Of a stretch of DNA of 64,000 nt, positions 1,700 through 18,510 are shown one piece after another. Location: NCBI RefSeq assembly GCF_006716425.1, contig NZ_VFOZ01000001.1:7521237-7585236 (forward strand), written 5' to 3'. The position numbers and the translations under genes were made by a program. Position 1 is the first letter of the stretch. Every line of letters begins with the position of its first letter. The stretch is from Actinoallomurus bryophytorum (lineage in GTDB: Bacteria > Actinomycetota > Actinomycetes > Streptosporangiales > Streptosporangiaceae). The notes under the pieces are model-generated. The model was not told the origin of the DNA. It saw nothing but the letters and a program-made list of their open reading frames with translations, and searched no databases.

Positions 1700-2542
1700 C
1701 TAGGGGACGGCCGCGGCCGTGAGGCCCAGCCGTTCGGCTCCGGTGTAGACGTTCATCGAGGTGCCGCGGAGAAAGCCGATCAACGTGAGCCCGGTCTCGG
1801 CGGCGAGCTCGACCGCGAGCGAGGACGGCGCGGAGACCGCGGCCATCGCGGGGATGCCGGCCATCACCGCCTTCTGCGCGAGCTCGAACGACGCGCGCCC
1901 CGAGACGAGCAGCGTGGCGCCGGTGAGCGGAAGAAGGTCGCGCTGCAGGGCCCAGCCGACGATCTTGTCCACGGCGTTGTGGCGCCCGACGTCCTCGCGG
2001 ACGCACAGGAGCTCGCCGCCGGCGTCGAACAGGCCCGCGGCGTGCAGGCCGCCGGTCCGCTCGAACACCCGCTGGGCCGCGCGCAGCCGGTCCGGCAGCG
2101 ACGCGATGGTCGCCGGGTCGAGGCGGAGCGGGTCCTCGCGCACACTCCACCGGGCGACCATCCGCACCGCGTCCAGGCTGGCCTTGCCGCACAGGCCGCA
2201 CGACGAGGTCGTGTAGAAGTTGCGCTCCAGCGTGCGGTCGGGGAGCGTGACGCCGTCCGCCAGCGCCATGTCCACGATGTTGTAGGTGTTGGCCCCTTCG
2301 TCGGTGGCCCCGGCGCAGTAGACGATCGCGCGGATCTCCTCCGCCCGCGTCACCACGCCCTCACCGACCAGGAAGCCCGCCGCGAGCTCGAAGTCGTCGC
2401 CGGGCGTGCGCATGGTGATGGTGAGCGGCCGTCCGCCGAGCCGGATCTCCAGCGGCTCCTCCGCCACCAGCGTGTCCGTCTTGAGGATCGGCATGCCGTC
2501 GGCGAGCCGCGTCATCCGGCGCCGTACCGTGCGCCTACCCAC
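1700..2542 (-). CDS. fdhD: FdhD, sulfurtransferase for formate dehydrogenase maturation
   Basis: FdhD receives sulfur from a cysteine desulfurase and delivers it to the bis-MGD cofactor of formate dehydrogenase. It acts in the cytoplasm. The 280-residue product has the family core: EEPLEIR at residues 28-34, MRTPGDDFELA at 44-54, the persulfide-carrying cysteine pair in SSCGLCGK (C115, C118), EDVGRHNAVDK and SGRASFELAQKA. The GTG at 2542 is chosen because family members start with a similar MGR..RRR sequence; an ATG at 2515 is the alternative. The start overlaps the upstream iron-sulfur gene by 8 bases, so the two are probably translationally coupled at the end of the fdh operon. Confidence 0.95.
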   Translation of the reverse strand: MGRRTVRRRMTRLADGMPILKTDTLVAEEPLEIRLGGRPLTITMRTPGDDFELAAGFLVGEGVVTRAEEIRAIVYCAGATDEGANTYNIVDMALADGVTLPDRTLERNFYTTSSCGLCGKASLDAVRMVARWSVREDPLRLDPATIASLPDRLRAAQRVFERTGGLHAAGLFDAGGELLCVREDVGRHNAVDKIVGWALQRDLLPLTGATLLVSGRASFELAQKAVMAGIPAMAAVSAPSSLAVELAAETGLTLIGFLRGTSMNVYTGAERLGLTAAAVP

Positions 2543-3455
2543 GGGTGCGGTTCTGTACGTGCTGGAAGCCGAACCGGCCCTTGACGCACAGGTTGCCGTG
2601 GGTGACCGGGTTGTCGTGCGGCGAGCTGACCTTGACGATCTCGTTGTCCTGCACGTGGAGGGTCAGGTTGCAGCCCACGCCGCAGTAGGTGCAGATCGTG
2701 GTCGTCTGGTCCTGCCGCGACTCGTCCCAGGTGCCCTCGGCCCGCATGTCGTACTCGCTTTTGAACGACAGCGCGCCGGTCGGGCACACCTCGATGCAGT
2801 TGCCGCAGTAGACACAGGCGGAGTCGGGCAGGGGAGCGGCGTGCTCGGTCGAGATCCGCGCGTCGAAGCCCCGCCCGGCGACGCCGATCGCGAAGGTGTT
2901 CTGCCACTGCTCGCCGCACGCGTCGACGCACTTGTAGCAGAGGATGCATTTCTCGTAGTCGCGTACGTACAGGTCGTTGTCCACCTTCGCCGGCTGGGCG
3001 ACGGTGGCCGCGGAGGCGCCGTCGGGGGACTCGTGGGCGCCGGGATGCCGGGCGTCACGGTCCGTGGACGCGTCGCCCGGCGGGCCGAAGCGCTCCGGGC
3101 GCGCGCCGTACTCCTCGGACCACTCCGCCGCCCCCGGTGTCGTGGACAGGTCGGTCGAGGAGCCCAGGAGCTCCAGTACGAGACGGCGGCTGTGCCGTAC
3201 GCGTTCGGTGTCGGTCATGATCTCCATGCCCGGCTCGACGCGGCGCGAGCAGGCCGGCACGAGAGTGCGGGCGCCCTTGACCTCGACCACGCAGATCCGG
3301 CAGGCGTTCTTCGGCGTGAGGGTGTCGCCGTAACACAGCGTCGGGGTACCCGGGCAGGCGTCGAGGATGGTCGAGCCTTCGGGCAACCGCACCGCTTCGC
3401 CGTCGACGGTGACGTCGACGAGGCGGCGCGGCGGGGCGAGGGGAACACCGGTCAT
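2535..3455 (-). CDS. Formate dehydrogenase iron-sulfur subunit (N-terminal part of a split alpha subunit)
   Basis: This 306-residue electron-transfer protein carries four predicted clusters. A plant-type [2Fe-2S] domain has C41, C52, C55 and C69. Two ferredoxin [4Fe-4S] sites have C170/173/176/180 and C214/217/220/224. A final CxxCxxxC site (C255, C258, C262, with C290) matches the Fe4S4 domain that normally opens the molybdopterin subunit. In FdsA/FdhF-type enzymes all of this is one chain with the catalytic domain; here the chain ends after the Fe4S4 domain and the catalytic part is the gene at 5332-7263. A charged, probably flexible segment lies at about residues 105-155. The start overlaps the stop of the NuoEF-like gene by 4 bases (ATGA). 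Confidence 0.88.
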   Translation of the reverse strand: MTGVPLAPPRRLVDVTVDGEAVRLPEGSTILDACPGTPTLCYGDTLTPKNACRICVVEVKGARTLVPACSRRVEPGMEIMTDTERVRHSRRLVLELLGSSTDLSTTPGAAEWSEEYGARPERFGPPGDASTDRDARHPGAHESPDGASAATVAQPAKVDNDLYVRDYEKCILCYKCVDACGEQWQNTFAIGVAGRGFDARISTEHAAPLPDSACVYCGNCIEVCPTGALSFKSEYDMRAEGTWDESRQDQTTTICTYCGVGCNLTLHVQDNEIVKVSSPHDNPVTHGNLCVKGRFGFQHVQNRTRG

Positions 3456-5329
3456 GAGGCGCTGCCTTCCTGGGGGGAGAGCTCACCCGTCGCGAACACG
3501 CCGAGACGGTCGATCGCGGACTCGACGGCGTTCCAGGCGGTCTGCCCGAGGCCGCAGATGGACGCGTCGCGCATCGCCCGGCCGACGTCGCGCAGCAGCG
3601 TCACGTCGGCCGGGCCCGAGCCCCGCGTCAGGCGGTGCAGTGCCTCCTCCTGACGCACGGTTCCCACCCGGCAGGGGACGCACTGGCCGCAGGACTCGTC
3701 GCGGAAGAACGCCGCGATCCGCAGCAGGACCCCGCCCAGGTCCACGCTGTCGTCGAGGACGAGCACGACGCCCGAGCCGAGACTGGCGCCCGCCGCACGC
3801 GTGCCCTCGAACGTGAGCGGAATGTCGAGCTCGTCGGGCCGCACGAACGAGCCCGCGGCGCCGCCGAGCAGGATCGCCCGCAACTCGCGGCCCTCGGGCA
3901 CGCCGCCGGCCAGGGTGAGCAGCTCGCGCAGCGTGGCGCCGAAGGGCAGCTCGTAGATCCCCGGCCGCCGCACCGTGCCGGACAGGCAGAACAGCTTGGT
4001 CCCGGTCGACCCGCCCTCGCCGGTGCCGACCGCGGCGTACGCGGCGGCGCCGCCGGTGAGGATGGGAAGGACGTTGACCAGCGTCTCGACGTTGTTGACG
4101 ACGGTGGGCTTGCCGAACAACCCCTTCTCGACCGGGAACGGCGGCTTGCTGCGCGGCTCGCCGCGGTACCCCTCGATCGAGTTGAAGATCGCCGTCTCCT
4201 CCCCGCAGATGTAGGCGCCGCCGCCGCGCCTGATCTCCAGGTCGAAGTCGAACCCGGATCCGAGGATGTCCTCGCCGAGCAGGTTCCGCTCACGAGCGCG
4301 TTCGATGGCGTTGGTCAGCAGGCGCAGCGCGCGGGGGTACTCACCCCGCAGGTAGAGGTAGCCCCGCCGGCAGCCGGTCGCGAAGGCCGCCACGGTCATC
4401 GCCTCGACCAGCGAGAACGGGTCGCCCTCCATGAGCACCCGGTCCTTGAACGTGCCGGGCTCGCTCTCGTCCGCGTTGCAGACCAGGTAGTGCGGGTGGT
4501 CGGGCTGCCGGGCGGTCGCGTCCCACTTGCGCCCGGTGGGGAACGCCGCACCGCCGCGGCCGACCAGGCCGGCGTCGAGGACCTCCCTGATCACGGCGGC
4601 GGGGCCGAGCCGGAACGCCCGGCGCAGCGCGAGGTACCCGCCGGCCGCCCGGTAGTCGTCCAGGCTCGACGGGTCGACCACGCCGACGCGGCGCAGCAGG
4701 ACCAGGTCGTCCTGGCCCGCCTGGGGGACCGCCGCGCCCGCCGGCGGTTCCTCGCCCGCGTGGTCCGGGGAACCGGCCGCCCGGGTGAGGTCGCCGGAGG
4801 TGGCCGGGGCGACGACCGCGGTACGCGGCGGCTCGCCCGCCTCCAGCACGAGCGCCGCCGGCGCGCGTTCGCACAGCCCGAGGCAGGGGCTGTGATGCCA
4901 GACGACGTCGCCCGTGTCGCCCGCCTGGCCGTGCGGGCCGAGCGAGTCCTCCAGCGACCGGCACAGGTCGCCGGCGCCCTTGGCCTGGCAGGCCAGGTCG
5001 GTGCACACGTGGACGACGCGCCGGGGACGGGGCTCGACCGAGAACAGCGCGTAGAACGTGGCCACCCCGTACGCCTCGGCGGGCGCGATGGTCAGGCGCC
5101 GGCAGACGTAGTCCAGGGCGCCCTCGCTGATCCAGCCCACCCGGTCGTTGACCGCGTGCAGCGCGGGGAGCAGCAGGTCCCGCCGCTCCCGCGCCTCGTG
5201 CCCGCCACGGGCGGTCCGGATGTCGTCCCGGCCGCCGCCGTCCCAGGCCGATGACGGCGGCCCGAGCAGGGCGTCGACCGCCGCGCGCTCCTCGTCGCCG
5301 GGCGCCACGTCACGAAAGCGCAGGTCCAT
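3452..5329 (-). CDS. NAD-reducing formate dehydrogenase diaphorase subunit, NuoE-NuoF fusion
   Basis: The 625-residue protein joins a NuoE/FdsG-like thioredoxin-fold [2Fe-2S] domain (about residues 20-160, cysteines in CTDLAC and CLGLC) to a NuoF/FdsB-like domain. The second domain has the NAD/FMN motif GRGGAAFPTGRKWDA, the SLBB region and a [4Fe-4S] motif ESCGQCVPCRVGT. It should carry electrons from the iron-sulfur subunit to NAD+. The ATG at 5329 is preferred over the upstream GTG/ATG region: a GGGAGG ribosome site precedes it and it lies 2 bases after the stop of the catalytic subunit gene. The two domains are separate subunits in FdsGBA enzymes and complex I. The fusion sits between the two halves of the alpha subunit in gene order. 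Confidence 0.9.
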   Translation of the reverse strand: MDLRFRDVAPGDEERAAVDALLGPPSSAWDGGGRDDIRTARGGHEARERRDLLLPALHAVNDRVGWISEGALDYVCRRLTIAPAEAYGVATFYALFSVEPRPRRVVHVCTDLACQAKGAGDLCRSLEDSLGPHGQAGDTGDVVWHHSPCLGLCERAPAALVLEAGEPPRTAVVAPATSGDLTRAAGSPDHAGEEPPAGAAVPQAGQDDLVLLRRVGVVDPSSLDDYRAAGGYLALRRAFRLGPAAVIREVLDAGLVGRGGAAFPTGRKWDATARQPDHPHYLVCNADESEPGTFKDRVLMEGDPFSLVEAMTVAAFATGCRRGYLYLRGEYPRALRLLTNAIERARERNLLGEDILGSGFDFDLEIRRGGGAYICGEETAIFNSIEGYRGEPRSKPPFPVEKGLFGKPTVVNNVETLVNVLPILTGGAAAYAAVGTGEGGSTGTKLFCLSGTVRRPGIYELPFGATLRELLTLAGGVPEGRELRAILLGGAAGSFVRPDELDIPLTFEGTRAAGASLGSGVVLVLDDSVDLGGVLLRIAAFFRDESCGQCVPCRVGTVRQEEALHRLTRGSGPADVTLLRDVGRAMRDASICGLGQTAWNAVESAIDRLGVFATGELSPQEGSAS

Positions 5330-5331
5330 GG

Positions 5332-7263
5332 TCAGTTCCCTCCCACGGGCCGGCACAGTGGCTCGACGCGTACGGCGGTGGCCTTGTACTCGGCGGTGCC
5401 GGCGATCGGGTCGGTGGCCTCGATGGTCAGGCTGTTGGTGTCCACCTCGTCGGGAAAGTGCATGGTCATGAAGACCAGGCCCGGCCGCAGGGCCGGATCG
5501 ACGAACACCGGGGCGGTGACCGTTCCGCGCCGGGACGAGACGCGTACCTCCTCACCCGGCGTGACGCCGAGCCGCCGGGCGTCCTCGGGGGACAGCTCGA
5601 TGTTCTCGCCCCGGCGCAGCGGCGAGGCGAACCCGCTGGACTGGACACCGGTGTTGTAGGAATCGAGCCTGCGGCCGGTGGTCAGCCGCAGGGGGAAGTC
5701 CTCGTCGAGCAGGTCGACCGGGGGCGAGTGGCGGAGCACCGCGAAGGGCGCGGGTCTGCCGCGCGCCTCGGCATCGGTCTCCCACAGCCGGGAGTGCAGG
5801 AACGAGGGCTCCACGCGGTCCTCGGAGTAGCAGGGCCACTGGATGCCCTGCAGCTCCTCCAGCCGGGAGTAGCTCATCCCGGCGTGGATGGGCGACAGCG
5901 ACCTGACCTCGTCCCAGATGTCCTCGGCGGCGTCGTAGTGCCAGTCGTGCCCGAGCCGGCGGGCCAGCTCGCACAGGATGTCGATGTCGTCGCGGGCCTC
6001 GCCCGGCGGGGCGAGTGCCTTGCGGACCCGCTGGACCCGGCGTTCGCTGTTGGTCATCGTGCCGTCCGACTCGCACCAGGCGGCGCTGGCGGGCAGGACG
6101 ACGTCGGCCATCCGCGCGGTCTTGGTGAGGAAGATGTCCTGCACCACCAGGTGGTCGAGCCGGCCGAGCCGCTCGACGGTGTGCTCGGCGTCCGCCTCGG
6201 ACTGAGTCGGGTTCTCCCCGATGATGTACGCGGCCGTCAGCCGGCCCTCGCCCATCGCGGCCAGCATGTCGGTGAGGTTGAGGCCGTACCGTGGCTGGAT
6301 CTCCGTTCCCCACGCCCGGCCGAACCGCTCCCGCACCCGCGCGTCGAGGATGTCCTGGAACCCGGCGAGGCGGTCGGGGATGGCGCCCATGTCGCCGCCG
6401 CCCTGGACGTTGTTCTGCCCGCGCAGCGGGTTGAGGCCCGAGGCGTAGCGTCCGACGTGCCCCGTCAGGAGCGCCAGGTTGATCAGTGCGCGGACGTTGT
6501 CGGTGGCGTTGTGGTGCTCGGTGATGCCGAGCGTCCAGCACAGCTGGGCGCGCTCGGCGCGGGCGTAGGCGTGCGCCAGCTCCCTGATGGCCCCGGCCGG
6601 GACACCCGTCACCTGCTCGGCGGACTCCAGGGTCCAGGGCTCGACGGACTCGGCGAACTCCTCGAACCCGGTGGTCCCGCGCTCGACGAACGTCGCGTTG
6701 TGCAGGCCGGCGTGGATGATCTCGCGGGCGATCGCGTTCGCGAGCGGGATGTCCGTGCCGACGTTCAGGCCGAGCCAGCGGTCCGCCCACCGCGCCGTGC
6801 TGGTGCGCCTCGGGTCGACCGCGAACACGCGTGCGCCCCGGCGGATCGCCTTGAGCACGTGCTGGAAGAAGATCGGATGCGCCTCACGCGCGCTGGACCC
6901 CCACATGACGATGAGGTCGGTGTCCTCGATCTCGGTGTACGACGACGTGCCGCCGCCGCTGCCGAAGGCGGCCGCCAGACCGGCCACGCTGGGGGCGTGG
7001 CAGGTCCGGTTGCACGAGTCGACGTTGTTGGTGCCGATCACCACGCGGGTGAACTTCTGGGCGACGAAGTTCATCTCGTTGGTCGCGCGGGCGCAGGAGA
7101 ACATCCCGAAGGCGTCCGGCCCGTGCCGCTCGACGTTGCGGCGGAAGCCGTCAGCGGCCCGGTCGAGGGCCTCGGCCCAGGTGGCGGGCCGGAGCTCACC
7201 GGCGTCACGTACGAGCGGGCGGGTCAGGCGCAGGTACGGCGCACGGGCGTTCTTCTTCGCCAT
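5332..7263 (-). CDS. Formate dehydrogenase molybdopterin catalytic subunit, cysteine form
   Basis: The 643-residue protein is the bis-MGD domain of a formate dehydrogenase without the usual N-terminal Fe4S4 domain, which is encoded at 2535-3455. The active-site motif is NRTCHAPSVAG: C88 (codon 7000-7002) takes the place of selenocysteine 140 of E. coli FdhF and H89 that of His141. LRGQNNVQGGGDMGA is the conserved arginine-containing cofactor loop, and the C-terminal molydopterin-binding domain ends near EYKATAVRVE. It oxidises formate to CO2 and passes electrons to the iron-sulfur subunits. The ATG at 7263 follows GTGAGGATCGAC and is preferred to a GTG at 7275. A regulator palindrome at 7286-7310 lies just upstream, so transcription probably begins here. 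Confidence 0.93.
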   Translation of the reverse strand: MAKKNARAPYLRLTRPLVRDAGELRPATWAEALDRAADGFRRNVERHGPDAFGMFSCARATNEMNFVAQKFTRVVIGTNNVDSCNRTCHAPSVAGLAAAFGSGGGTSSYTEIEDTDLIVMWGSSAREAHPIFFQHVLKAIRRGARVFAVDPRRTSTARWADRWLGLNVGTDIPLANAIAREIIHAGLHNATFVERGTTGFEEFAESVEPWTLESAEQVTGVPAGAIRELAHAYARAERAQLCWTLGITEHHNATDNVRALINLALLTGHVGRYASGLNPLRGQNNVQGGGDMGAIPDRLAGFQDILDARVRERFGRAWGTEIQPRYGLNLTDMLAAMGEGRLTAAYIIGENPTQSEADAEHTVERLGRLDHLVVQDIFLTKTARMADVVLPASAAWCESDGTMTNSERRVQRVRKALAPPGEARDDIDILCELARRLGHDWHYDAAEDIWDEVRSLSPIHAGMSYSRLEELQGIQWPCYSEDRVEPSFLHSRLWETDAEARGRPAPFAVLRHSPPVDLLDEDFPLRLTTGRRLDSYNTGVQSSGFASPLRRGENIELSPEDARRLGVTPGEEVRVSSRRGTVTAPVFVDPALRPGLVFMTMHFPDEVDTNSLTIEATDPIAGTAEYKATAVRVEPLCRPVGGN

Positions 7264-7285
7264 GTCGATCCTCACAGCGGGGGGG

Positions 7286-7310
7286 ATACTGTATGCAATT
7301 TACCGTATGC
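7286..7310. promoter_or_regulatory. Predicted GntR operator upstream of formate dehydrogenase operon (site A)
   Basis: ATACTGTATGC at 7286-7296 is followed by TACCGTATGC at 7301-7310. The core ATAC-T-GTAT is the same as in the site at 18525-18533 and is the complement of the core at 24565-24573. It lies 23 bases before the ATG of the catalytic subunit. The regulator is inferred to be the GntR protein at 11049. Confidence 0.6.
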
Positions 7311-7345: not shown

Positions 7346-8460
7346 TCACCCTCCGTTCGTCTCGGGGACCTTCTCGACGCGGATCGCCGTCGCCTTGTAC
7401 TCGGCGGTGCCGGCGATCGGGTCGGTGGCCTCGATGGTCAGGATGTTGGTGTCGACCTCGTCCGGGGAGTGCGGGGTCATGAACGCCGGTCCCGGCCGTA
7501 GCGCCGGGTCGACGGCCACCGGTGCGGTCACCGATCCGCGCCGCGAGCTCGCGCCGGTCCATCGCCTCCAGCATCTGGGTGAGGTGCATGCCGTGGCGCG
7601 GCTGGATCTCCCGGCCGTACGCGGCGCCGAACCTGGCCCGTACCTCCGGGTCGAGGATGTCCTGGAAACCGGGCATCCGGTTCGGGATGGCGCCCATGTC
7701 GCCGCCACCTTGGACGTTGTTCTGCCCGCGCAGCGGGTTGAGTCCGGAGCCGTAGCGTCCGACGTGCCCGGTGAGCAGCGACAGGTTGATCAGTGCGCGG
7801 ACGTTGTCGGTGGCGTTGTGATGCTCGGTGATGCCGAGCGTCCAGCACAGCTGCGCCCGGTCGGCCCGTGCGTACGCGTGCGCGAGCGCGCGGATCGCCT
7901 CGGCCGGGACGCCGGTCTCCCGCTCGACGGCCGCGAGGGTCCACGGCTCGACGGCGGCGGCCAGCTCGGCGAAGCCGGTGGTGGCCCGGTCGACGAAGGT
8001 CTCGTTGACCAGTCCCGCGTGGATGATCTCGCGGGCGACGGCGTTCGCCAGCGGGATGTCGGTGCCGATGTCGAGCCCGAGCCAGCCGTCGGCCCACTCG
8101 GCCGAGCTCGTACGGCGCGGATCGACGACGAACAGCCGTGCTCCGTTACGTACTCCCTTCAGGAGTGCCACCCCCGGCACCGAACACTGCCGCCAGACCG
8201 GCGCCGCTGGGAGCGTGTCAAGTGCGGTTGCAGGAGTCGATGTTGTTCGTCCCGATGACCTGCCGCACGAACTTCTGCGCGACGTAGTTCATCTCGTTGG
8301 TCGCGCGCGAGCAGGAGAACATGCCGAACGCGTCCGGGCCGTGGGCCTCGACGTTGCGCCGGAAGCCCTCGGCCGCGCGGTCGAGCGCCTCCTCCCAGGT
8401 GGCGGTGCGCAGCTCGCCGTGGTCACGGACGAGGGGCTCGGTGAGCCGGGTGTAACGCAT
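7346..8460 (-). pseudogene. Decayed formate dehydrogenase catalytic subunit, ancestral selenocysteine form
   Basis: This is a second copy of the molybdopterin subunit, closely similar to the intact gene downstream but broken. Codons 1-80 from the ATG at 8460 match the intact N-terminus and end in DSCNRT, then TGA at 8218-8220, then HAPSGAGLAAVFGAGGG. The TGA stands exactly where the intact copy has its catalytic cysteine. Beyond that, about 30 codons are missing after GAGGG and the frame shifts. The frame 7.55-8.18 kb continues with GARLFVVDPRRT to LTQMLEAMDRREL. A second deletion of about 250 codons then joins to SSRRGSVTAPV and the C-terminus ENGG-like end at 7346, again in another frame. 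About 0.8 kb is lost overall. It starts 16 bases after the PanE-like gene, with a good AAGGAG ribosome site. Confidence 0.88.
8189..8220 (-). promoter_or_regulatory. In-frame TGA with bacterial SECIS-like hairpin in the formate dehydrogenase pseudogene
   Basis: TGA at 8218-8220 is followed after 18 bases by GGTCT (8199-8195) flanked by GCGCC and GGCGG-type arms. These can form a short stem of four consecutive pairs with the GGTCT in the loop. The E. coli fdhF element has the same GGTCT in its loop, also 18 bases after its TGA. The caution is that GGTCTG also encodes the conserved Gly-Leu and is present in the intact cysteine copy, so the hairpin alone proves little. Confidence 0.5.
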
Positions 8461-8476
8461 GGTCTGCTCCTTGTCG

Positions 8477-9463
8477 TCACGCGGGGACGGTGGCGCCGAT
8501 GATCTTCTGGTTGATCAGGCCGGCGACGGCGTTGATGGCTCGCAGGGTGGGGACGGGCGTGCCGGTGAGGTCCGCGAGCTCGACCACCGCGGTCAGGATC
8601 ACGTCCAGCTCGAGGGGCTTGCCCTTCTCCAGGTCCTGGAGCATGGAGGTCTTGTGGTGGCCGGCACGCTCGGCGCCGGCCAGGCGCCGCTCGATGGAGA
8701 TCTCCGGGCGGCAGCCGAGACGCTCGGCGACGTCGAGCGTCTCGCGCATCATCGTGATGACCAGCTCGCGGCTGTCGCGGTGCCGGCAGATCTCGATCAT
8801 CGTCGCCCGGCTCAGCGCGCTGATCGGGTTGAACGCGATGTTGCCCATGAGCTTGATCCAGATGTCCTCCCGCAGATCCGCCTCGACCGGGCACTTGAGC
8901 CCGCCGGCCACCATCGCCTCACTGAAGGCGACACAACGCGGGGAGATGGCACCGCCCGGCTCGCCGATGGAGAAGCGGGTGCCCTCCAGGTGCCGGATCA
9001 CCCCCGGGGCGGTGATCTCGGTGGCGGCGTAGACGACGCAGCCGATCGCGCGCTCGGGCGGGATCGTGGCCGTCACGGCGCCGCCGGGATCGACGGTCTC
9101 GATGCGGTACCCCTCGTGCGGGCCCGCCAGCTTGTGGAAGTACCACCAGGGGATGCCGTTCTGCGCCGCGATGACCGCGGTGTCGTCCTTCGTGAGTGGA
9201 TCGAGCATCGGGCCGCAGCCCGCATAGGCATTGGCCTTGAGCCCGAGGAAGACATGGTCGACCGGCCCGATCTCACGGGGGTCGTCGGTGGCCGGGGGAC
9301 GGGCGGTGAAATCCCCGCGCGGGCTGAGCACGCGTACGCCGTCCCGCCGGATGGCCTCCAGATGGGCACCGCGCGCGACCAGATGGACGTCCACCCCGGC
9401 GCGGTGCAGGGCTGCTCCGACATAGGCACCGATCGCACCGGCGCCGACAACGGCGACTCTCAC
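8477..9463 (-). CDS. PanE/ApbA-family reductase, candidate oxalyl-CoA reductase
   Basis: The 328-residue NAD(P)-dependent reductase has an N-terminal Rossmann site (VVGAGAIGAYVGAALH, residues 4-19) and the all-alpha C-terminal ketopantoate reductase domain, including KLMGNIAFNPISAL and LEKGKPLELDVI. The family norm is 2-dehydropantoate 2-reductase. In Methylobacterium extorquens a PanE paralogue (PanE2) is the oxalyl-CoA reductase that makes glyoxylate. Its place here beside formate dehydrogenase, an oxalate operon and the glycerate pathway makes that role the better guess, but pantothenate synthesis cannot be excluded from sequence. The GTG start at 9463 has GGAG about 7 bases upstream. A near-perfect operator lies 24 bases before it. 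Confidence 0.8.
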   Translation of the reverse strand: MRVAVVGAGAIGAYVGAALHRAGVDVHLVARGAHLEAIRRDGVRVLSPRGDFTARPPATDDPREIGPVDHVFLGLKANAYAGCGPMLDPLTKDDTAVIAAQNGIPWWYFHKLAGPHEGYRIETVDPGGAVTATIPPERAIGCVVYAATEITAPGVIRHLEGTRFSIGEPGGAISPRCVAFSEAMVAGGLKCPVEADLREDIWIKLMGNIAFNPISALSRATMIEICRHRDSRELVITMMRETLDVAERLGCRPEISIERRLAGAERAGHHKTSMLQDLEKGKPLELDVILTAVVELADLTGTPVPTLRAINAVAGLINQKIIGATVPA

Positions 9464-9486
9464 GGGAACTCCGTTCTCGTGGGGGC

Positions 9487-9510
9487 TACTGTATTTTGTC
9501 TACAGTATGC
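9487..9510. promoter_or_regulatory. Predicted GntR operator between panE-like gene and selC (site B)
   Basis: TACTGTA (9487-9493) and TACAGTA (9501-9507) form a perfect inverted repeat with a 7-base spacer, and the right arm extends to TACAGTATGC. The site lies 24 bases upstream of the PanE-like start and about 35 bases upstream of the divergent tRNA-Sec gene, so it could control both. Confidence 0.6.
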
Positions 9511-9544
9511 TTCTATAGGGGTCAAGGGTGAGTTCCGCGTCCGA

Positions 9545-9637
9545 GGAGGCGAGAAGGTGCCTGGTGGCCCTCACGGTCTTCAAAACCGATGGGACCCTGA
9601 CGAAGGGTCCGGTGGGTTCGATTCCCATCCGCCTCCG
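9545..9637 (+). tRNA. selC: tRNA-Sec (anticodon TCA)
   Basis: The 93-base tRNA has every hallmark of selC. The acceptor arms GGAGGCG (9545-9551) and CGCCTCC (9630-9636) pair and are followed by discriminator G at 9637. The anticodon loop CTTCAAA at 9578-9584 has TCA at 9580-9582. A very long variable arm of 7 bp (GGACCCT/AGGGTCC, loop GACGA) follows, then a T-arm with the loop TTCGATT. The CCA end is not encoded (CCT follows). This tRNA would be charged with serine, converted to selenocysteine and inserted at UGA. It lies only 36 bases before moeA and 1.3 kb from a formate dehydrogenase remnant with TGA at the catalytic position. Confidence 0.95.
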
Positions 9638-9673: not shown

Positions 9674-10810
9674 ATGCCCTGGCGCCTGGCCAGGGCGATG
9701 GCGGCCGCGGCCACGCCGCTCGAGACGATCAGCCTGCCGATCGGCGAGGCCGGGGGTGCCGTGCTCGCCGGCCCGCTGCACGCGCGCGCCGACCTGCCGG
9801 CCTTCGACGCCGCCGCGATGGACGGCTACGCCGTGGCGGGGCCGGGCCCATGGACGATCACCGGCCGCGTCATGGCCGGGCCGTCGGCCCCGGGTGAGGT
9901 CGGTCCCGGCCAGGCGGTGGAGATCGGGACCGGTGCCCCGGTGCCGTGTGGCACCGAGGCCGTCGTCCCGTACGAGTCGGCCACGCGCAAGGGCGCCTGG
10001 GTCCGCGGGCCGTTCGAGCCCGGGCGGCACGTCCGGCGCCGCGGCGAGGACTGCCAGAGGGGCACGAAGGTGCTGCCCTCGGGCACGGTGGTCACCCCCG
10101 TGGCGCAGGGGCTGGCGGCGAGCCTCGGCCAGGACGTGCTCCGCGTACGCCGGCGGCCGCGCGTCACCGTCCTGGTGACCGGCGACGAGCTCGCCACCTC
10201 CGGCCTTCCCGGCGCGGGCCGGGTACGCGACGCACTGGGCCCGCTGCTGCCGGGTCTGATCGCATGGGCCGGAGGAGAGACCGGCCCGCCGTCCCGCGTC
10301 GCGGACCGGGGATCACTGCTGGCCACCGCCATCGCGGCGGCCGATGAGGCCGACGTCGTCGTCGTGTGCGGCTCGTCTTCGAAGGGCGCCGCCGACCACC
10401 TGCGCGAGGTCCTGGGCGAGGCGGGGGCGGAGCTGCTCGTCGAGAGCGTGGCCTGCCGGCCGGGTCATCCGCAGCTGCTGGCGCGGCTCGCCGACGGCCG
10501 GCTGGTCGTCGGCCTGCCCGGCAACCCGTATGCCGCGCTGGTCGCCGCGCTGACCCTTCTCGTCCCGGCCCTCGGCGGGATGACCGGGCGGGTCGACGGC
10601 CATGGTGAGTGGGTGAAGCTGGACACGCGCGTCACGGCGCACCCGGCGGACACGCGCATCGTGGCGGTACGCCGGGCCGGCGCCCAGATGGTGCCGGTCG
10701 GCCACGACCGGCCCGGCCTGCTGTGGGGAGCGGCCCTGGCCGACGCGCTGGCCGTCGTGCCACCACGGTGGCGGGGCGAAGAGGTGGAGCTCCTCAGCCT
10801 TCCGTTCTGA
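9674..10810 (+). CDS. moeA: MoeA, molybdopterin molybdenumtransferase
   Basis: MoeA inserts molybdate into adenylylated molybdopterin in the cytoplasm, giving the cofactor needed by formate dehydrogenase. The 378-residue product has the family motifs DAAAMDGYAV near residue 46, GTGAPVP, VLVTGDEL, and the C-terminal GLPGNPYAALV. It is slightly shorter than typical MoeA (about 400 residues) and the usual TTGGVSVG segment reads CGSSSKGAA. The ATG at 9674 is the only clear start; the frame stays open upstream through selC but that extension is not protein-like. It is probably cotranscribed with selC, and a hairpin terminator follows. Confidence 0.88.
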   Translation: MPWRLARAMAAAATPLETISLPIGEAGGAVLAGPLHARADLPAFDAAAMDGYAVAGPGPWTITGRVMAGPSAPGEVGPGQAVEIGTGAPVPCGTEAVVPYESATRKGAWVRGPFEPGRHVRRRGEDCQRGTKVLPSGTVVTPVAQGLAASLGQDVLRVRRRPRVTVLVTGDELATSGLPGAGRVRDALGPLLPGLIAWAGGETGPPSRVADRGSLLATAIAAADEADVVVVCGSSSKGAADHLREVLGEAGAELLVESVACRPGHPQLLARLADGRLVVGLPGNPYAALVAALTLLVPALGGMTGRVDGHGEWVKLDTRVTAHPADTRIVAVRRAGAQMVPVGHDRPGLLWGAALADALAVVPPRWRGEEVELLSLPF

Positions 10811-11015: not shown

Positions 11016-11048
11016 ACAGATCACCCGAAACCTCTTGTGGGGGCTGGC

Positions 11049-11762
11049 ATGACGTTCTTCACCGAAAGCGCGAAGAGCGTGGATATGCCTCGGCTGAGAC
11101 GCCCCGCTCCGCTCCGTGAAGGCGTCTACGAGGCCCTGCTGGAGCTGATCGTCACCCGCGCGCTCCAGCCGGGGCAGCACCTCGTCGAGAGCGAGCTGGC
11201 GACGCGTCTCGGCATCTCCCGGCAGCCGGTGCGCGAAGCGCTCCAGCGGCTGAGCACGGAGGGCTGGGTCGACCTTCGGCCGGCTCACGGGGCCTTCGTG
11301 CACGCACCGACCGAAGAGGAGGCCGACCAGCTTCTCGCCGTGCGGTCCCTGCTGGAGGCGGAGTCGGCGCGCCTCGCCGCCGCCAACATGACCCCCCAGG
11401 CCGTCGCGGGCCTGCGGGAGATCTGTGAGCGCGGGGTGAGCGCCCTGGCGGCCGACGAGGTCGACGCCGTGGTCGCGGCCAACGCCGAGCTGCACTCGGC
11501 GATCGTCGAGTTGTCCGGCAACAAGGTGCTGGCCGAGCTCGCGGCCCAGGTGGACCGGCGCGTCCGCTGGTATTACACGCCCGTGGCCCGGCAGCGAGGG
11601 CCGGAGTCGTGGACGGAGCACGCGGCATTGATCGACGCGCTCGCCGAGCACGATGGCGAGCAGGCCGCGCAGATCATGCGCGAGCACACCGAGCAGACGC
11701 GCCGGTCCTATCACCGGCGTGCGGAAAGTGAAGTCACGGGACCTCCTACGTCGGCCATGTGA
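11049..11762 (+). CDS. GntR-family (FadR/FCD) transcriptional regulator of the oxalate-formate island
   Basis: The 237-residue regulator has an N-terminal winged helix (about residues 20-80, LATRLGISRQPVREALQRL) and a C-terminal FCD ligand-binding domain. Its metal-binding residues include the aspartate/histidine positions around NAELHSAIVELSGN and REHTEQTRRSYH. FCD regulators usually sense small carboxylates or CoA derivatives; oxalate, glyoxylate, oxalyl-CoA or formyl-CoA are plausible here. It stands between the two arms of the island, and similar palindromes lie at five promoters, including its own. ATG 11049 is chosen with GGGGG 5 bases before it; a GTG at 11037 is possible. It converges on the antiporter gene with only 24 bases between stops. 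Confidence 0.88.
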   Translation: MTFFTESAKSVDMPRLRRPAPLREGVYEALLELIVTRALQPGQHLVESELATRLGISRQPVREALQRLSTEGWVDLRPAHGAFVHAPTEEEADQLLAVRSLLEAESARLAAANMTPQAVAGLREICERGVSALAADEVDAVVAANAELHSAIVELSGNKVLAELAAQVDRRVRWYYTPVARQRGPESWTEHAALIDALAEHDGEQAAQIMREHTEQTRRSYHRRAESEVTGPPTSAM

Positions 11763-16720: not shown

Positions 16721-18421
16721 TCACTTGTACATGGTCTGGTTCATGGTTCCGGGCGCGTACACGTCGGTGTCGATCCACACGTTGATGAGCGACGGTCTGC
16801 CCGACTCACGCGCGCGCTCCAGGGCGGGCCGGATGTCGCCCGGCTCACGGACCTCCTCGCCGTGGCCGCCGAGCATCTTGGCGAACTCGCTGTAGGGGAC
16901 GTCGCCGAGTGTGTTGCCGACCCGCTCGCGGTCCTTGCCGTACTTGGCCGCCTGCCCGTAGCGGATCTGGTTCATCGAGGAGTTGTTGCCGACGATCCCG
17001 ACGAACGGCAGGTCGAAGCGGACCAGCGTCTCGAAGTCCCAGCCGGTGAGGCTGAACGCGCCGTCGCCGAACAGGGCGACGACCTCCTTGTCCGGCCGGG
17101 CCTGCTTGGCGGCCATCACGAACGGGATGCCGACACCGAGAGTGCCGAGCGGGCCGGGGTCCATCCAGTGGCCGGGGGACTTGGGCTGCACGACCTGCCC
17201 GGAGAAGGTGACGATGTCGCCGCCGTCGCCGACGTAGATCGAGTCCTCGGTGAGGAACTCGTTGATCTCGTGCACGAGCCGGTACGGGTGGATCGGCGAG
17301 GCGTCGGAGTGCTGCAGCGGCAGCCGCTTCTCGTAGGCCCGTGTCTCCTCGGACCGGAGCTCCTCCAGCCATGCCTTACGCCCGGCGGCGCCGTTGTCGC
17401 CACGCCCGGAGGCGGCCTGGGTGACGGCGGACAGGATGAGGCCCGCGTCGCCGACGATGCCCAGGTCGACGTCCCTGTTCTTACCGACCGTGCGGTAGTC
17501 CAGGTCGATCTGGACCACCGTGGCGTCGGGGGAGAGGCGGCGCCCATAGCCCATACGGAAGTCGAACGGCGTGCCGACGATGACGATGACGTCGGCGTTG
17601 TTGAACGCGTAACGCCGTGAGAGCTGGTAGTGGTGCGGATCGCCCGGCGGCAGGGTGCCGCGGCCGGCGCCGTTCATGTACGCGGGCACGTTGAGCGCGC
17701 GCACCAGCTCGGCCGCGGCCGAGGTCGCCCGGGTGGTCCAGGTCTGGCTGCCGAGCAGGATGCACGGCTTGTCGGCGTTCACCAGCAGGTCGGCCAGGCG
17801 CTCGATGGCCGCGGGATCGCCCTGCTGACGCGTCGAGGCGCGGTACCGTCCGGGCTCCGGTACTCGCGCCTTCTCCCGCGGCACCTTGGCGTCGAGCACG
17901 TCGCGGGGGATCTCGAGGAACGACGGGCCGGGCGCGCCGTTGTAGCACTCGCGGAAGGCCATCGAGACGATGTCCGCGACGCGCTCGGTGTGCGGGACGG
18001 TGGCGGCGAACTTGGTGATCGGCGCCATCATGTCGACGTGCGGCAGGTCCTGTAGTGAGCCCATCTTGTGCTGGCTCAGCGCGCCCTGGCCGCCGATGAG
18101 CAGCATCGGGCTCTCCGCACGCAGCGCGTTCGCGACCCCGGTGACGGCGTCAGTCGTCCCGGGCCCCGCCGTGACGACGGCGCAGCCGGCCTTTCCGGTG
18201 ATGCGGGCATGGCCGTCGGCGGCGTGCGCGGCGACCTGCTCATGGCGTACGTCGATGACCTTGATGCCCTCGTCGACGCAGCCGTCGTAGATATCGATGA
18301 TGTGGCCGCCGCAAAGCGTGTAGATCACGTCGACGCCCTCCGCCTTGAGGGCCTTGGCGACGAGATGCCCACCTGAGATGAGGTCCGTGGCTTGGGGTTC
18401 CGGCTCGGGTGACGTGGCCAT
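16721..18421 (-). CDS. ThDP-dependent oxalyl-CoA decarboxylase / 2-hydroxyacyl-CoA lyase-like enzyme
   Basis: The 566-residue enzyme has the three domains of the acetolactate synthase fold: an N-terminal PYR domain with catalytic glutamate in DVRHEQVAAHAADG, a central domain, and a PP domain with the ThDP-metal motif FGDGAFSLTGWDFETL...GNN. Placed first in the frc operon, its most economical role is oxalyl-CoA decarboxylase giving formyl-CoA and CO2. However, the segment after GGQGAL reads SQHKMGSLQDLPHVDMM and resembles 2-hydroxyacyl-CoA lyases or ILVBL proteins. Classical Oxc has SSEREIVDLQQGDYEE there. The chemistry is therefore inferred. ATG 18421 is chosen; an upstream TTG at 18433 is possible, with AAGGAG directly before it. 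Confidence 0.8.
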   Translation of the reverse strand: MATSPEPEPQATDLISGGHLVAKALKAEGVDVIYTLCGGHIIDIYDGCVDEGIKVIDVRHEQVAAHAADGHARITGKAGCAVVTAGPGTTDAVTGVANALRAESPMLLIGGQGALSQHKMGSLQDLPHVDMMAPITKFAATVPHTERVADIVSMAFRECYNGAPGPSFLEIPRDVLDAKVPREKARVPEPGRYRASTRQQGDPAAIERLADLLVNADKPCILLGSQTWTTRATSAAAELVRALNVPAYMNGAGRGTLPPGDPHHYQLSRRYAFNNADVIVIVGTPFDFRMGYGRRLSPDATVVQIDLDYRTVGKNRDVDLGIVGDAGLILSAVTQAASGRGDNGAAGRKAWLEELRSEETRAYEKRLPLQHSDASPIHPYRLVHEINEFLTEDSIYVGDGGDIVTFSGQVVQPKSPGHWMDPGPLGTLGVGIPFVMAAKQARPDKEVVALFGDGAFSLTGWDFETLVRFDLPFVGIVGNNSSMNQIRYGQAAKYGKDRERVGNTLGDVPYSEFAKMLGGHGEEVREPGDIRPALERARESGRPSLINVWIDTDVYAPGTMNQTMYK

Positions 18422-18510
18422 GTCCTGCGTCAACTCCTTACATTCGGTGGCTCGTTTTCCTGGTGTCGTGCCAGGTCAAAGCCGTTGTGGCGCCGGTGAA
18501 CTCAACATTG

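What the first reader, a model, noticed from the sequence alone, without database searches (positions are those of the whole stretch)
7346..9637. A selenocysteine formate dehydrogenase caught after replacement by a cysteine paralogue, with tRNA-Sec next to it
The decayed copy has TGA (8218-8220) exactly at the catalytic position, in NRT-TGA-HAPSG, where the intact neighbour has NRTCHAPSV (C88, codon 7000-7002). A clear selC gene lies 1.3 kb away at 9545-9637. Two deletions with frameshifts show the TGA copy is dead. That the TGA meant selenocysteine rather than a chance stop is inference, strongly favoured by position and by selC. The locus records a selenocysteine-to-cysteine switch by tandem paralogues.
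Basis: partly seen in the sequence, partly recalled or inferred. Interest (0 to 1): 0.88.

Follow-up and report, generated by a model that had tools for sequence, protein, structure and literature searches.

The report
Dead selenocysteine gene beside cysteine twin
In this soil actinomycete a formate-oxidising enzyme gene that once used the rare amino acid selenocysteine has recently been broken by two deletions next to an intact cysteine-using relative, and a close relative still has both genes whole but has instead lost the extra selenocysteine tRNA gene beside them.

Summary
The broken copy (7346-8460, minus) has TGA at the codon matching the selenocysteine of E. coli FdhF. Two deletions (89 and 704 nt) break its frame. 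A same-genus species, Actinoallomurus iriomotensis, has this copy intact, TGA included, in the same tandem. Among 42 distinct TGA copies GGTCTG follows in 42 (2 of 126 Cys copies), and 251 of 252 stem cells of the hairpin pair; the one break is in this pseudogene. selA, selB, selD, a second selC and another UGA-containing formate dehydrogenase are present.

Two points of the first interpretation change. The Cys copy was not made here by duplication: a local origin is rejected (AU p 0.0076). The nearby selC is an extra copy; at its place A. iriomotensis has a decayed one (14 against 78.5 bits). So decay is reciprocal: here selC is intact and the Sec gene dead; there selC is dead and the Sec gene intact. 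The window's Sec gene died recently (dN/dS 0.13). Sec/Cys formate dehydrogenase pairs and Sec-to-Cys replacement are known; reciprocal decay and a gene-conversion tract are the new elements.

The parts
7346..8460 (-). Pseudogene of a selenocysteine-type fdhA (formate dehydrogenase catalytic subunit); 89-nt deletion between 8165 and 8164 and 704-nt deletion between 7547 and 7546
   Evidence: pieces match TIGR01591; 90-94% nucleotide identity to the intact TGA copy of A. iriomotensis
8218..8220 (-). In-frame TGA, former selenocysteine codon
   Evidence: aligned with C88 of the neighbour and the non-standard residue of E. coli FdhF; one of 42 distinct TGA contexts
8189..8205 (-). Relic SECIS hairpin (6-bp stem, GGUCU loop, nt +13 to +29 after the UGA); one stem pair broken by a Val-to-Gly change
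   Evidence: 251 of 252 stem cells pair in 42 TGA copies, the only break being this copy
5332..7275 (-). Intact fdhA with catalytic Cys (codon 7000-7002); likely start ATG 7263
   Evidence: TIGR01591 655.6 bits from profile position 53, no stop
9545..9636 (+). Local, extra tRNA-Sec gene (selC)
   Evidence: 78.5 bits; decayed at the same place in A. iriomotensis
8477..9463 (-). Ketopantoate reductase-like gene (panE-like) heading the Sec unit
   Evidence: NF005089 445.7 bits, cut-off 223; tree groups it with a Sec-only locus, Actinomadura sp. HBU206391, SH-aLRT 98
3452..5356 (-). FdhEF: NuoE/NuoF-like, probably NAD-linked subunit, fused
   Evidence: family resemblance; TIGR01959 446.4 bits, under its cut-off of 558.65
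2535..3455 (-). Fe-S subunit with NuoG-like domains plus the [4Fe-4S] domain I of FdhA (profile positions 1-53)
1700..2542 (-). fdhD, sulfurtransferase for formate dehydrogenase maturation
   Evidence: NF001943 380.9 bits, cut-off 269
9487..9507 (.). Operator-like inverted repeat TACTGTA-N7-TACAGTA upstream of the panE-like/Sec unit
   Evidence: 2 exact matches to TACNGTA-N7-TACNGTA in the window, 0.06 expected (up to 2 mismatches)
7287..7307 (.). The same operator-like repeat just upstream of the Cys fdhA
   Evidence: kept in A. iriomotensis with 1 mismatch
9674..10810 (+). moeA-like molybdenum cofactor gene downstream of selC
   Evidence: 209.1 bits to NF011068, under its cut-off of 534
11037..11762 (+). 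GntR-type regulator, candidate for binding the two repeats (inferred)
   Evidence: 111.7 bits to TIGR03338, under its cut-off of 271.5; family level only

Best explanation
The ancestor of this strain and A. iriomotensis carried two isozymes of a probably cytoplasmic, NAD-linked molybdenum formate dehydrogenase in one locus. One was a Sec unit (operator, panE-like gene, fdhA with UGA and a SECIS hairpin) with an extra tRNA-Sec gene beside it. The other was a Cys unit (operator, fdhA with TGC, then the FdhEF, Fe-S and FdhD genes). Both fdhA products would use the same partner subunits (inferred), so the Sec form would be the faster enzyme when selenium is present and the Cys form the selenium-free substitute. 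The Cys gene is a member of an older Cys lineage that may have arisen once from the Sec form elsewhere and was brought next to the Sec copy by transfer or recombination (inferred). The redundant parts then decayed differently: this strain lost the Sec fdhA by two deletions, recently, and runs on the Cys enzyme; A. iriomotensis kept both enzymes and lost the extra tRNA gene. Shown here: Sec identity of the codon (by comparison), death of the copy, intact orthologous pair, separate ancestry, decayed selC. Inferred: shared partner subunits, selenium-dependent use, route of arrival.
For: Intact TGA orthologue beside a Cys orthologue in A. iriomotensis. TGA at the catalytic codon of an intact copy in 12 of the 91 family genomes that matched (of 297 searched), and in all 25 phylum matches with a TGA whose codon was checked. 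SECIS: GGTCTG in 42 of 42 TGA copies against 2 of 126 Cys copies; stem paired in 251 of 252 cells, shuffle mean 233.0, sd 2.8, 0 of 2000 as high; Cys copies 506 of 756, below their shuffle mean of 534.8. selC in 12 of 12 genomes with an intact TGA copy against 22 of 61 Cys-only genomes. Own genome: selA 409.4 bits, selB 282.8, selD 384.6, second selC 76.5, all over cut-off, and another UGA-containing FDH with CCCCGGTCTGGGG after the UGA. Pseudogene groups with Sec copies of A. iriomotensis and Actinomadura (100/98); local duplication rejected (p 0.0076). dN/dS 0.126 for pseudogene against its orthologue, 0.171 Cys pair, 0.184 panE: recent death. Physiology of what looks like the same enzyme type by subunit sizes: Se-dependent formate removal with FDH3 (640, 614, 316 aa) in Actinomycetospora chiangmaiensis (PMC7176365, passages).
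Against: One origin of Cys is not shown: the careful tree needs 2 changes, only 34% of 200 bootstrap trees have one, though one clade is not rejected (p 0.354). A wider duplication that includes the Actinomadura copy is not rejected (p 0.111). Downstream gene trees do not place the pair with the Cys lineage of its fdhA: FdhEF and the Fe-S subunit lean to Nocardiopsis-type operons (86 and 89), FdhD to Streptomyces-type (94), none at 95. The selC relic of A. iriomotensis has an Rfam E-value of 7.6; its identification rests on its place and on alignment with the window's gene. Only two genomes carry the tandem. No expression or selenium data for either species. The deletions come from one assembly.
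Confidence: 0.87

Rival explanations
1. The TGA is a chance nonsense mutation in what was an ordinary Cys gene.
For: The copy is dead in any case, and a stop is a common lesion.
Against: The intact orthologue and 40 further distinct copies have TGA at exactly this codon with a paired hairpin after it.
Confidence: 0.01
2. A recent tandem duplication in this genus made the pair, with one Sec-to-Cys (or reverse) codon change on the spot.
For: Tandem position; A. iriomotensis paralogues share a 130-nt identical tract; the window Cys copy keeps the SECIS loop letters GGTCTG; including the Actinomadura Sec copy, one clade is not rejected (p 0.111).
Against: The four Actinoallomurus genes as one clade are rejected (p 0.0076); Cys and Sec copies group with different outside relatives; the shared tract is short, 81.5% identity outside it.
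Confidence: 0.07
3. The genome is losing selenocysteine as a whole, and the pseudogene is one sign of it.
For: Many Cys-only genomes had no selC match (39 of 61).
Against: All four sel genes, two intact selC and another UGA-containing formate dehydrogenase are present.
Confidence: 0.03
4. The two deletions are assembly errors at a tandem repeat, and the Sec copy is alive.
For: Tandem paralogues; dN/dS still low.
Against: The two kinds of copy are only about 79% identical in protein, too different for an easy collapse; lesions are 89 and 704 nt with no extra letters at either junction; a further change breaks the SECIS stem.
Confidence: 0.04

Closest known systems
FDH3 of Actinomycetospora chiangmaiensis DSM 45062 (PMC7176365, passages read)
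   Same: Same subunit set by size (FdhA3 640 aa with Sec, FdhB3 614, FdhC3 316, plus FdhD); cytoplasmic; formate from formyl-CoA
   Different: Sec only there, with no selenium-independent formate oxidation encoded; here Cys copy alive, Sec copy dead. Its sequence was not compared here
fdhF1 (Cys) and fdhF2 (Sec) of Acetobacterium woodii; fdhFcys and fdhFsec of Treponema primitia, selenium-regulated (described in PMC6288185, passages read; Matson 2010 not read)
   Same: Sec and Cys formate dehydrogenase paralogues kept in one cluster or, in T. primitia, 14 genes apart, as likely selenium switch
   Different: Other enzyme complex and phyla; no decay of either copy and no linked tRNA-Sec mentioned in the passages read
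Sec-to-Cys conversions of FdhA (PMC1794560, passages read: 7 Sec-to-Cys, no Cys-to-Sec)
   Same: Same direction and enzyme family; SECIS remnants after Cys codons were reported there
   Different: There inferred from clustering of Sec and Cys sequences; here the discarded Sec copy is still visible beside the Cys copy, with an intact pair in a sister species
Multiple tRNA-Sec genes and tRNA-Sec pseudogenes (PMC5330540, passages read)
   Same: Extra tRNA-Sec copies with compensatory changes, in bacteria too
   Different: No case in the passages read of reciprocal decay of a linked selC and selenoprotein gene

Membership tests
Formate dehydrogenase alpha subunit, TIGR01591 | Score over the curated cut-off 666.25 bits | tested here: not met
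   Cys copy 655.6 bits over profile 53-672; profile 1-53 is matched by the separate Fe-S subunit (54.2 bits), so the shortfall fits a split subunit
Formate dehydrogenase alpha subunit, TIGR01591 | Sec or Cys at the position of the E. coli FdhF selenocysteine | tested here: met
Bacterial selenoprotein gene (ancestral state of 7346-8460) | In-frame UGA followed by a SECIS hairpin at the usual short distance | tested here: met
   stem starts 13 nt after the UGA (usual distance recalled); one pair broken in this dead copy
Bacterial selenoprotein gene (ancestral state of 7346-8460) | selA, selB, selC, selD in the genome | tested here: met
Bacterial selenoprotein gene (ancestral state of 7346-8460) | Selenium found in the protein | not testable with these tools
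   No protein data
Sec/Cys formate dehydrogenase isozyme pair | Both forms encoded in one locus | tested here: met
   Both intact in A. iriomotensis; in the window one is dead
Sec/Cys formate dehydrogenase isozyme pair | Expression switched by selenium | not testable with these tools
   Separate operator-like repeats exist, function unknown
tRNA-Sec | Rfam RF01852 over the gathering score and UCA anticodon | tested here: met
   the A. iriomotensis relic fails it (14 of 47 bits)

The most novel reading that the evidence does not exclude
selC and the panE-fdhA(Sec) unit arrived or assembled as a self-sufficient selenocysteine cassette that carried its own tRNA-Sec into a genome that already had one, next to a Cys substitute. 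Being doubly redundant, the cassette then broke at different parts in sister species: the selenoprotein gene here, the tRNA gene in A. iriomotensis, where gene conversion also mixed the Sec and Cys genes.
Probability: 0.3. Interest if true: 0.68.

Novelty: new variant of a known kind. Interest (0 to 1): 0.56.

Why it matters
Sec-to-Cys replacement in formate dehydrogenase is usually inferred from trees after the fact. Here an intermediate is visible: both forms side by side and whole in one species, the Sec form freshly dead in its sister, with the partner tRNA gene decaying in the opposite species. That makes the order of loss, the cost of the Sec form and the role of a second tRNA-Sec testable in soil bacteria. 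The SECIS comparison also gives a motif, fixed in the 42 TGA copies examined, for calling selenocysteine formate dehydrogenases of this type in Actinomycetota, which naive annotation would break at the UGA.

Tried and rejected
Downstream genes (FdhEF, Fe-S subunit, FdhD, and all three joined) were used to ask which operon donated what; the trees did not settle it. A search for local selC in other fdh loci gave none in 80 named loci nor in the 14 unnamed ones scanned (L042 and L072-L084). The idea that selC proximity is ancestral was dropped: the nearest Sec-only locus (Actinomadura HBU206391) has no recognisable selC in the short gap between panE and moeA. Minimum free energy of the region after the codon did not separate TGA from Cys copies in the expected direction (mean -12.2 against -14.1); only the named stem and loop did. 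Exact substrate of the neighbouring TPP enzyme (16721-18433) stays open: its matches shown are below their cut-offs. selB at E 1e-65 was found in 8 of the 12 genomes with intact TGA copies; the four without are drafts of 77-95% completeness. G290 carries one TGA in fdhA, but not at the catalytic codon, where it has Cys, and no selC was found in it; it was counted as Cys. Two short family matches (G257, G219, no stop inside) were not fetched. Of the 42 TGA-bearing matches (of 48) in the phylum search 25 were fetched and their codon checked. Left out of the 125-row tree were 11 distant homologues of 32-39% identity, two of them with Arg at the catalytic position and nine with Cys, and one of 27%; the careful tree used a hand-picked 51 rows. 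The Fisher p of 3e-5 ignores relatedness. In the gene-conversion test a weaker run between the window Cys gene and the A. iriomotensis Sec gene reached 16 of 5000 permutations, and a Nonomuraea Cys gene as control 185 of 5000.
Full report
WHAT IS THERE. The window is G000:C1:7521237-7585236 of a 9.47-Mb genome. On the minus strand lie a panE-like gene (8477-9463), a broken fdhA (7346-8460), an intact fdhA (5332-7275), a NuoE/NuoF-like fusion (3452-5356), an Fe-S protein (2535-3455) and fdhD (1700-2542); on the plus strand selC (9545-9636) and a moeA-like gene. The intact fdhA matches TIGR01591 only from profile position 53; positions 1-53, the [4Fe-4S] domain I, sit at the end of the Fe-S protein. 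The enzyme is therefore split between two proteins. Similar sizes (640, 614 and 316 aa) are printed for the Sec-containing FDH3 of Actinomycetospora chiangmaiensis, where formate removal depended on selenium (PMC7176365, passages read). Further out are formyl-CoA transferase (TIGR03253, 653.9 bits, cut-off 504.2), an MFS transporter whose best matches are lactate and oxalate/formate carriers, and a GntR-type regulator, the last two below all cut-offs shown. Formate from formyl-CoA is the likely substrate (inferred).

THE CODON. TGA 8218-8220 aligns with C88 of the neighbour and with the non-standard residue of E. coli FdhF. A same-genus genome, G001, has an intact frame with the single TGA there, 79% identical to the window Cys protein, directly before a Cys copy 90% identical to the window's. 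By contig identity it is Actinoallomurus iriomotensis NBRC 103681. It and the window's genome are the 2 of 8 genus genomes with this gene type; the other matches are 33-39% identical. In the family, 91 of 297 genomes matched at E 1e-150; 13 matches carry a TGA and in 12 it is the catalytic codon. At E 1e-180, 25 of 394 genomes matched in the class sample and 47 of 396 in the phylum sample; 42 of the 48 phylum matches carry a TGA, and in the 25 of these that were fetched it is the catalytic codon.

SECIS. I compared 42 distinct TGA contexts (the pseudogene among them) with 126 distinct Cys contexts. The two codons GGT CTG are fixed in 42 of 42 TGA copies and occur in 2 of 126 Cys copies, one of which is the window's own Cys gene. 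A 6-bp stem from +13 to +29 around a GGUCU loop pairs in 251 of 252 cells; shuffling gives 233.0, sd 2.8, never as high in 2000. One position switches between C-G (29) and G-C (13), a two-sided change. Cys copies pair in 506 of 756 cells, below their shuffled mean of 534.8. The one unpaired cell is a Val-to-Gly change in the window pseudogene. The loop letters are those of the E. coli fdhF SECIS as I recall it. Folding energy as such did not favour the TGA copies.

MACHINERY. The genome has selA (409.4 bits), selB (282.8), selD (384.6), all over cut-off, and two selC over cut-off. A second formate dehydrogenase has one in-frame TGA in QIENQARI-TGA-HSATVPG followed by CCCCGGTCTGGGG. So selenocysteine is very likely still in use here. 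Across 80 genomes selC was found in 12 of 12 with an intact TGA copy, 22 of 61 with Cys only, 6 of 6 genus members lacking this gene type, and the window's own. In 6 of 8 genus genomes a selC lies 12-31 kb from selB on one contig, in G000 the copy at 7604569; of the other two, G004 has its selC and selB on different contigs and G005 gave no selB. The window's selC is an addition to that copy.

RECIPROCAL DECAY. Between panE and moeA in A. iriomotensis there is an alignable relic of the same selC (82% over 115 nt): 14 bits against a gathering score of 47, E 7.6, with a 2-bp deletion, a changed anticodon loop and a lost 3' acceptor half. Its own other selC is intact (75.2 bits). The window's local selC is as well formed as its other copy (78.5 against 76.5 bits), with one unpaired acceptor position that the intact A. 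iriomotensis copy also has. Thus the sister with the living Sec gene has the dead tRNA gene and the reverse. ARAGORN found no selC at any of the 80 named fdh loci as held.

DEATH OF THE SEC COPY. Against the intact orthologue the window copy lacks 89 and 704 nt; what remains shows dN 0.036 and dS 0.28 (ratio 0.126), no looser than the Cys pair (0.171) or panE (0.184). Selection held for most of the time since the split, so death is recent.

ANCESTRY. With the catalytic column masked, a quick tree of 125 rows needs one change between TGA (39) and Cys (86), support 68. A careful tree of 51 rows, picked from these and from named loci, needs two; 34% of 200 bootstrap trees have one, and one Cys clade is not rejected (p 0.354). 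The deep lineages sampled are TGA, and published counts for FdhA are 7 Sec-to-Cys and no Cys-to-Sec (PMC1794560, passages), so Sec-to-Cys is the likely direction. The pseudogene, A. iriomotensis TGA and Actinomadura TGA form a clade (100/98). The window and A. iriomotensis Cys genes form another (100/99). Joining the four Actinoallomurus genes is rejected (p 0.0076); adding Actinomadura it is not (p 0.111). panE follows the Sec side (98). An inverted repeat TACNGTA-N7-TACNGTA stands before panE and before the Cys fdhA (2 found, 0.06 expected). With up to 2 mismatches it stands before fdhA in 37 of 94 Cys rows and before panE in 26 of 83; among TGA rows before panE in 6 of 6 (three loci, each held twice) and before fdhA in 1 of 18, a weak match in Halopolyspora. 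This fits two units joined side by side, but the downstream genes do not resolve the donor.

GENE CONVERSION. In A. iriomotensis the Sec and Cys genes share a 130-nt identical tract (L042 12007-12136 and 14030-14159), 30 polymorphic sites in a row, 0 of 5000 permutations; elsewhere they are 81.5% identical, and the two species' Cys genes are only 90% identical in the tract. The two forms therefore seem to exchange sequence, though the tract does not include the catalytic codon.

COMPARISON. Sec/Cys formate dehydrogenase pairs are known from A. woodii and, selenium-regulated, from T. primitia (PMC6288185, passages). Several tRNA-Sec copies per genome are known (PMC5330540, passages). In the lists shown by searches of the held library I saw no title or abstract on this locus, on Actinoallomurus selenoproteins, or on a linked selC and selenoprotein gene decaying in opposite sisters; subscription journals are mostly not covered.

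VERDICT. The story is less a switch made on the spot than the pruning of a doubly redundant Sec/Cys locus, caught at different stages in two species.

Noticed in passing
L042 12007-12136 and 14030-14159 (A. iriomotensis): 130-nt identical tract between the Sec and Cys fdhA genes, a sign of gene conversion between the two forms
   Followed up: yes
window 2535-3455 and 5332-7275: FdhA is split: its [4Fe-4S] domain I is carried by the Fe-S subunit; relatives whose contigs reach far enough keep fdhA, FdhEF and Fe-S genes together
   Followed up: partly
window 6976-6981 (minus), codons after C88: The window Cys fdhA keeps the SECIS loop letters GGTCTG, found in only 2 of 126 Cys copies: relic, conversion or chance
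   Followed up: partly
L009 about 7553 (G000:C1 about 7592553): Second formate dehydrogenase of the genome with an in-frame TGA and a CCCC-GGTCT-GGGG hairpin, a likely living selenoprotein
   Followed up: partly
L075 9913-11799 (G290): Cys-type fdhA with one TGA away from the catalytic codon in a genome where no selC was found: perhaps a pseudogene or sequencing error
   Followed up: no
G291, G286, G230, G152, G248, G004, G061: Two or three tRNA-Sec genes over cut-off in each of these genomes; extra selC copies look frequent in this family
   Followed up: no
L073 843-1865 and L083 9412-10542: selB lies on the same contig as the Sec fdhA, next to panE in L073 and a few kb on in L083, so linkage of fdh and sel genes recurs
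   Followed up: no
window 16721-18433 (minus): TPP enzyme beside formyl-CoA transferase, not over the cut-off of any family shown; 2-hydroxyacyl-CoA lyase or oxalyl-CoA decarboxylase are both possible
   Followed up: partly
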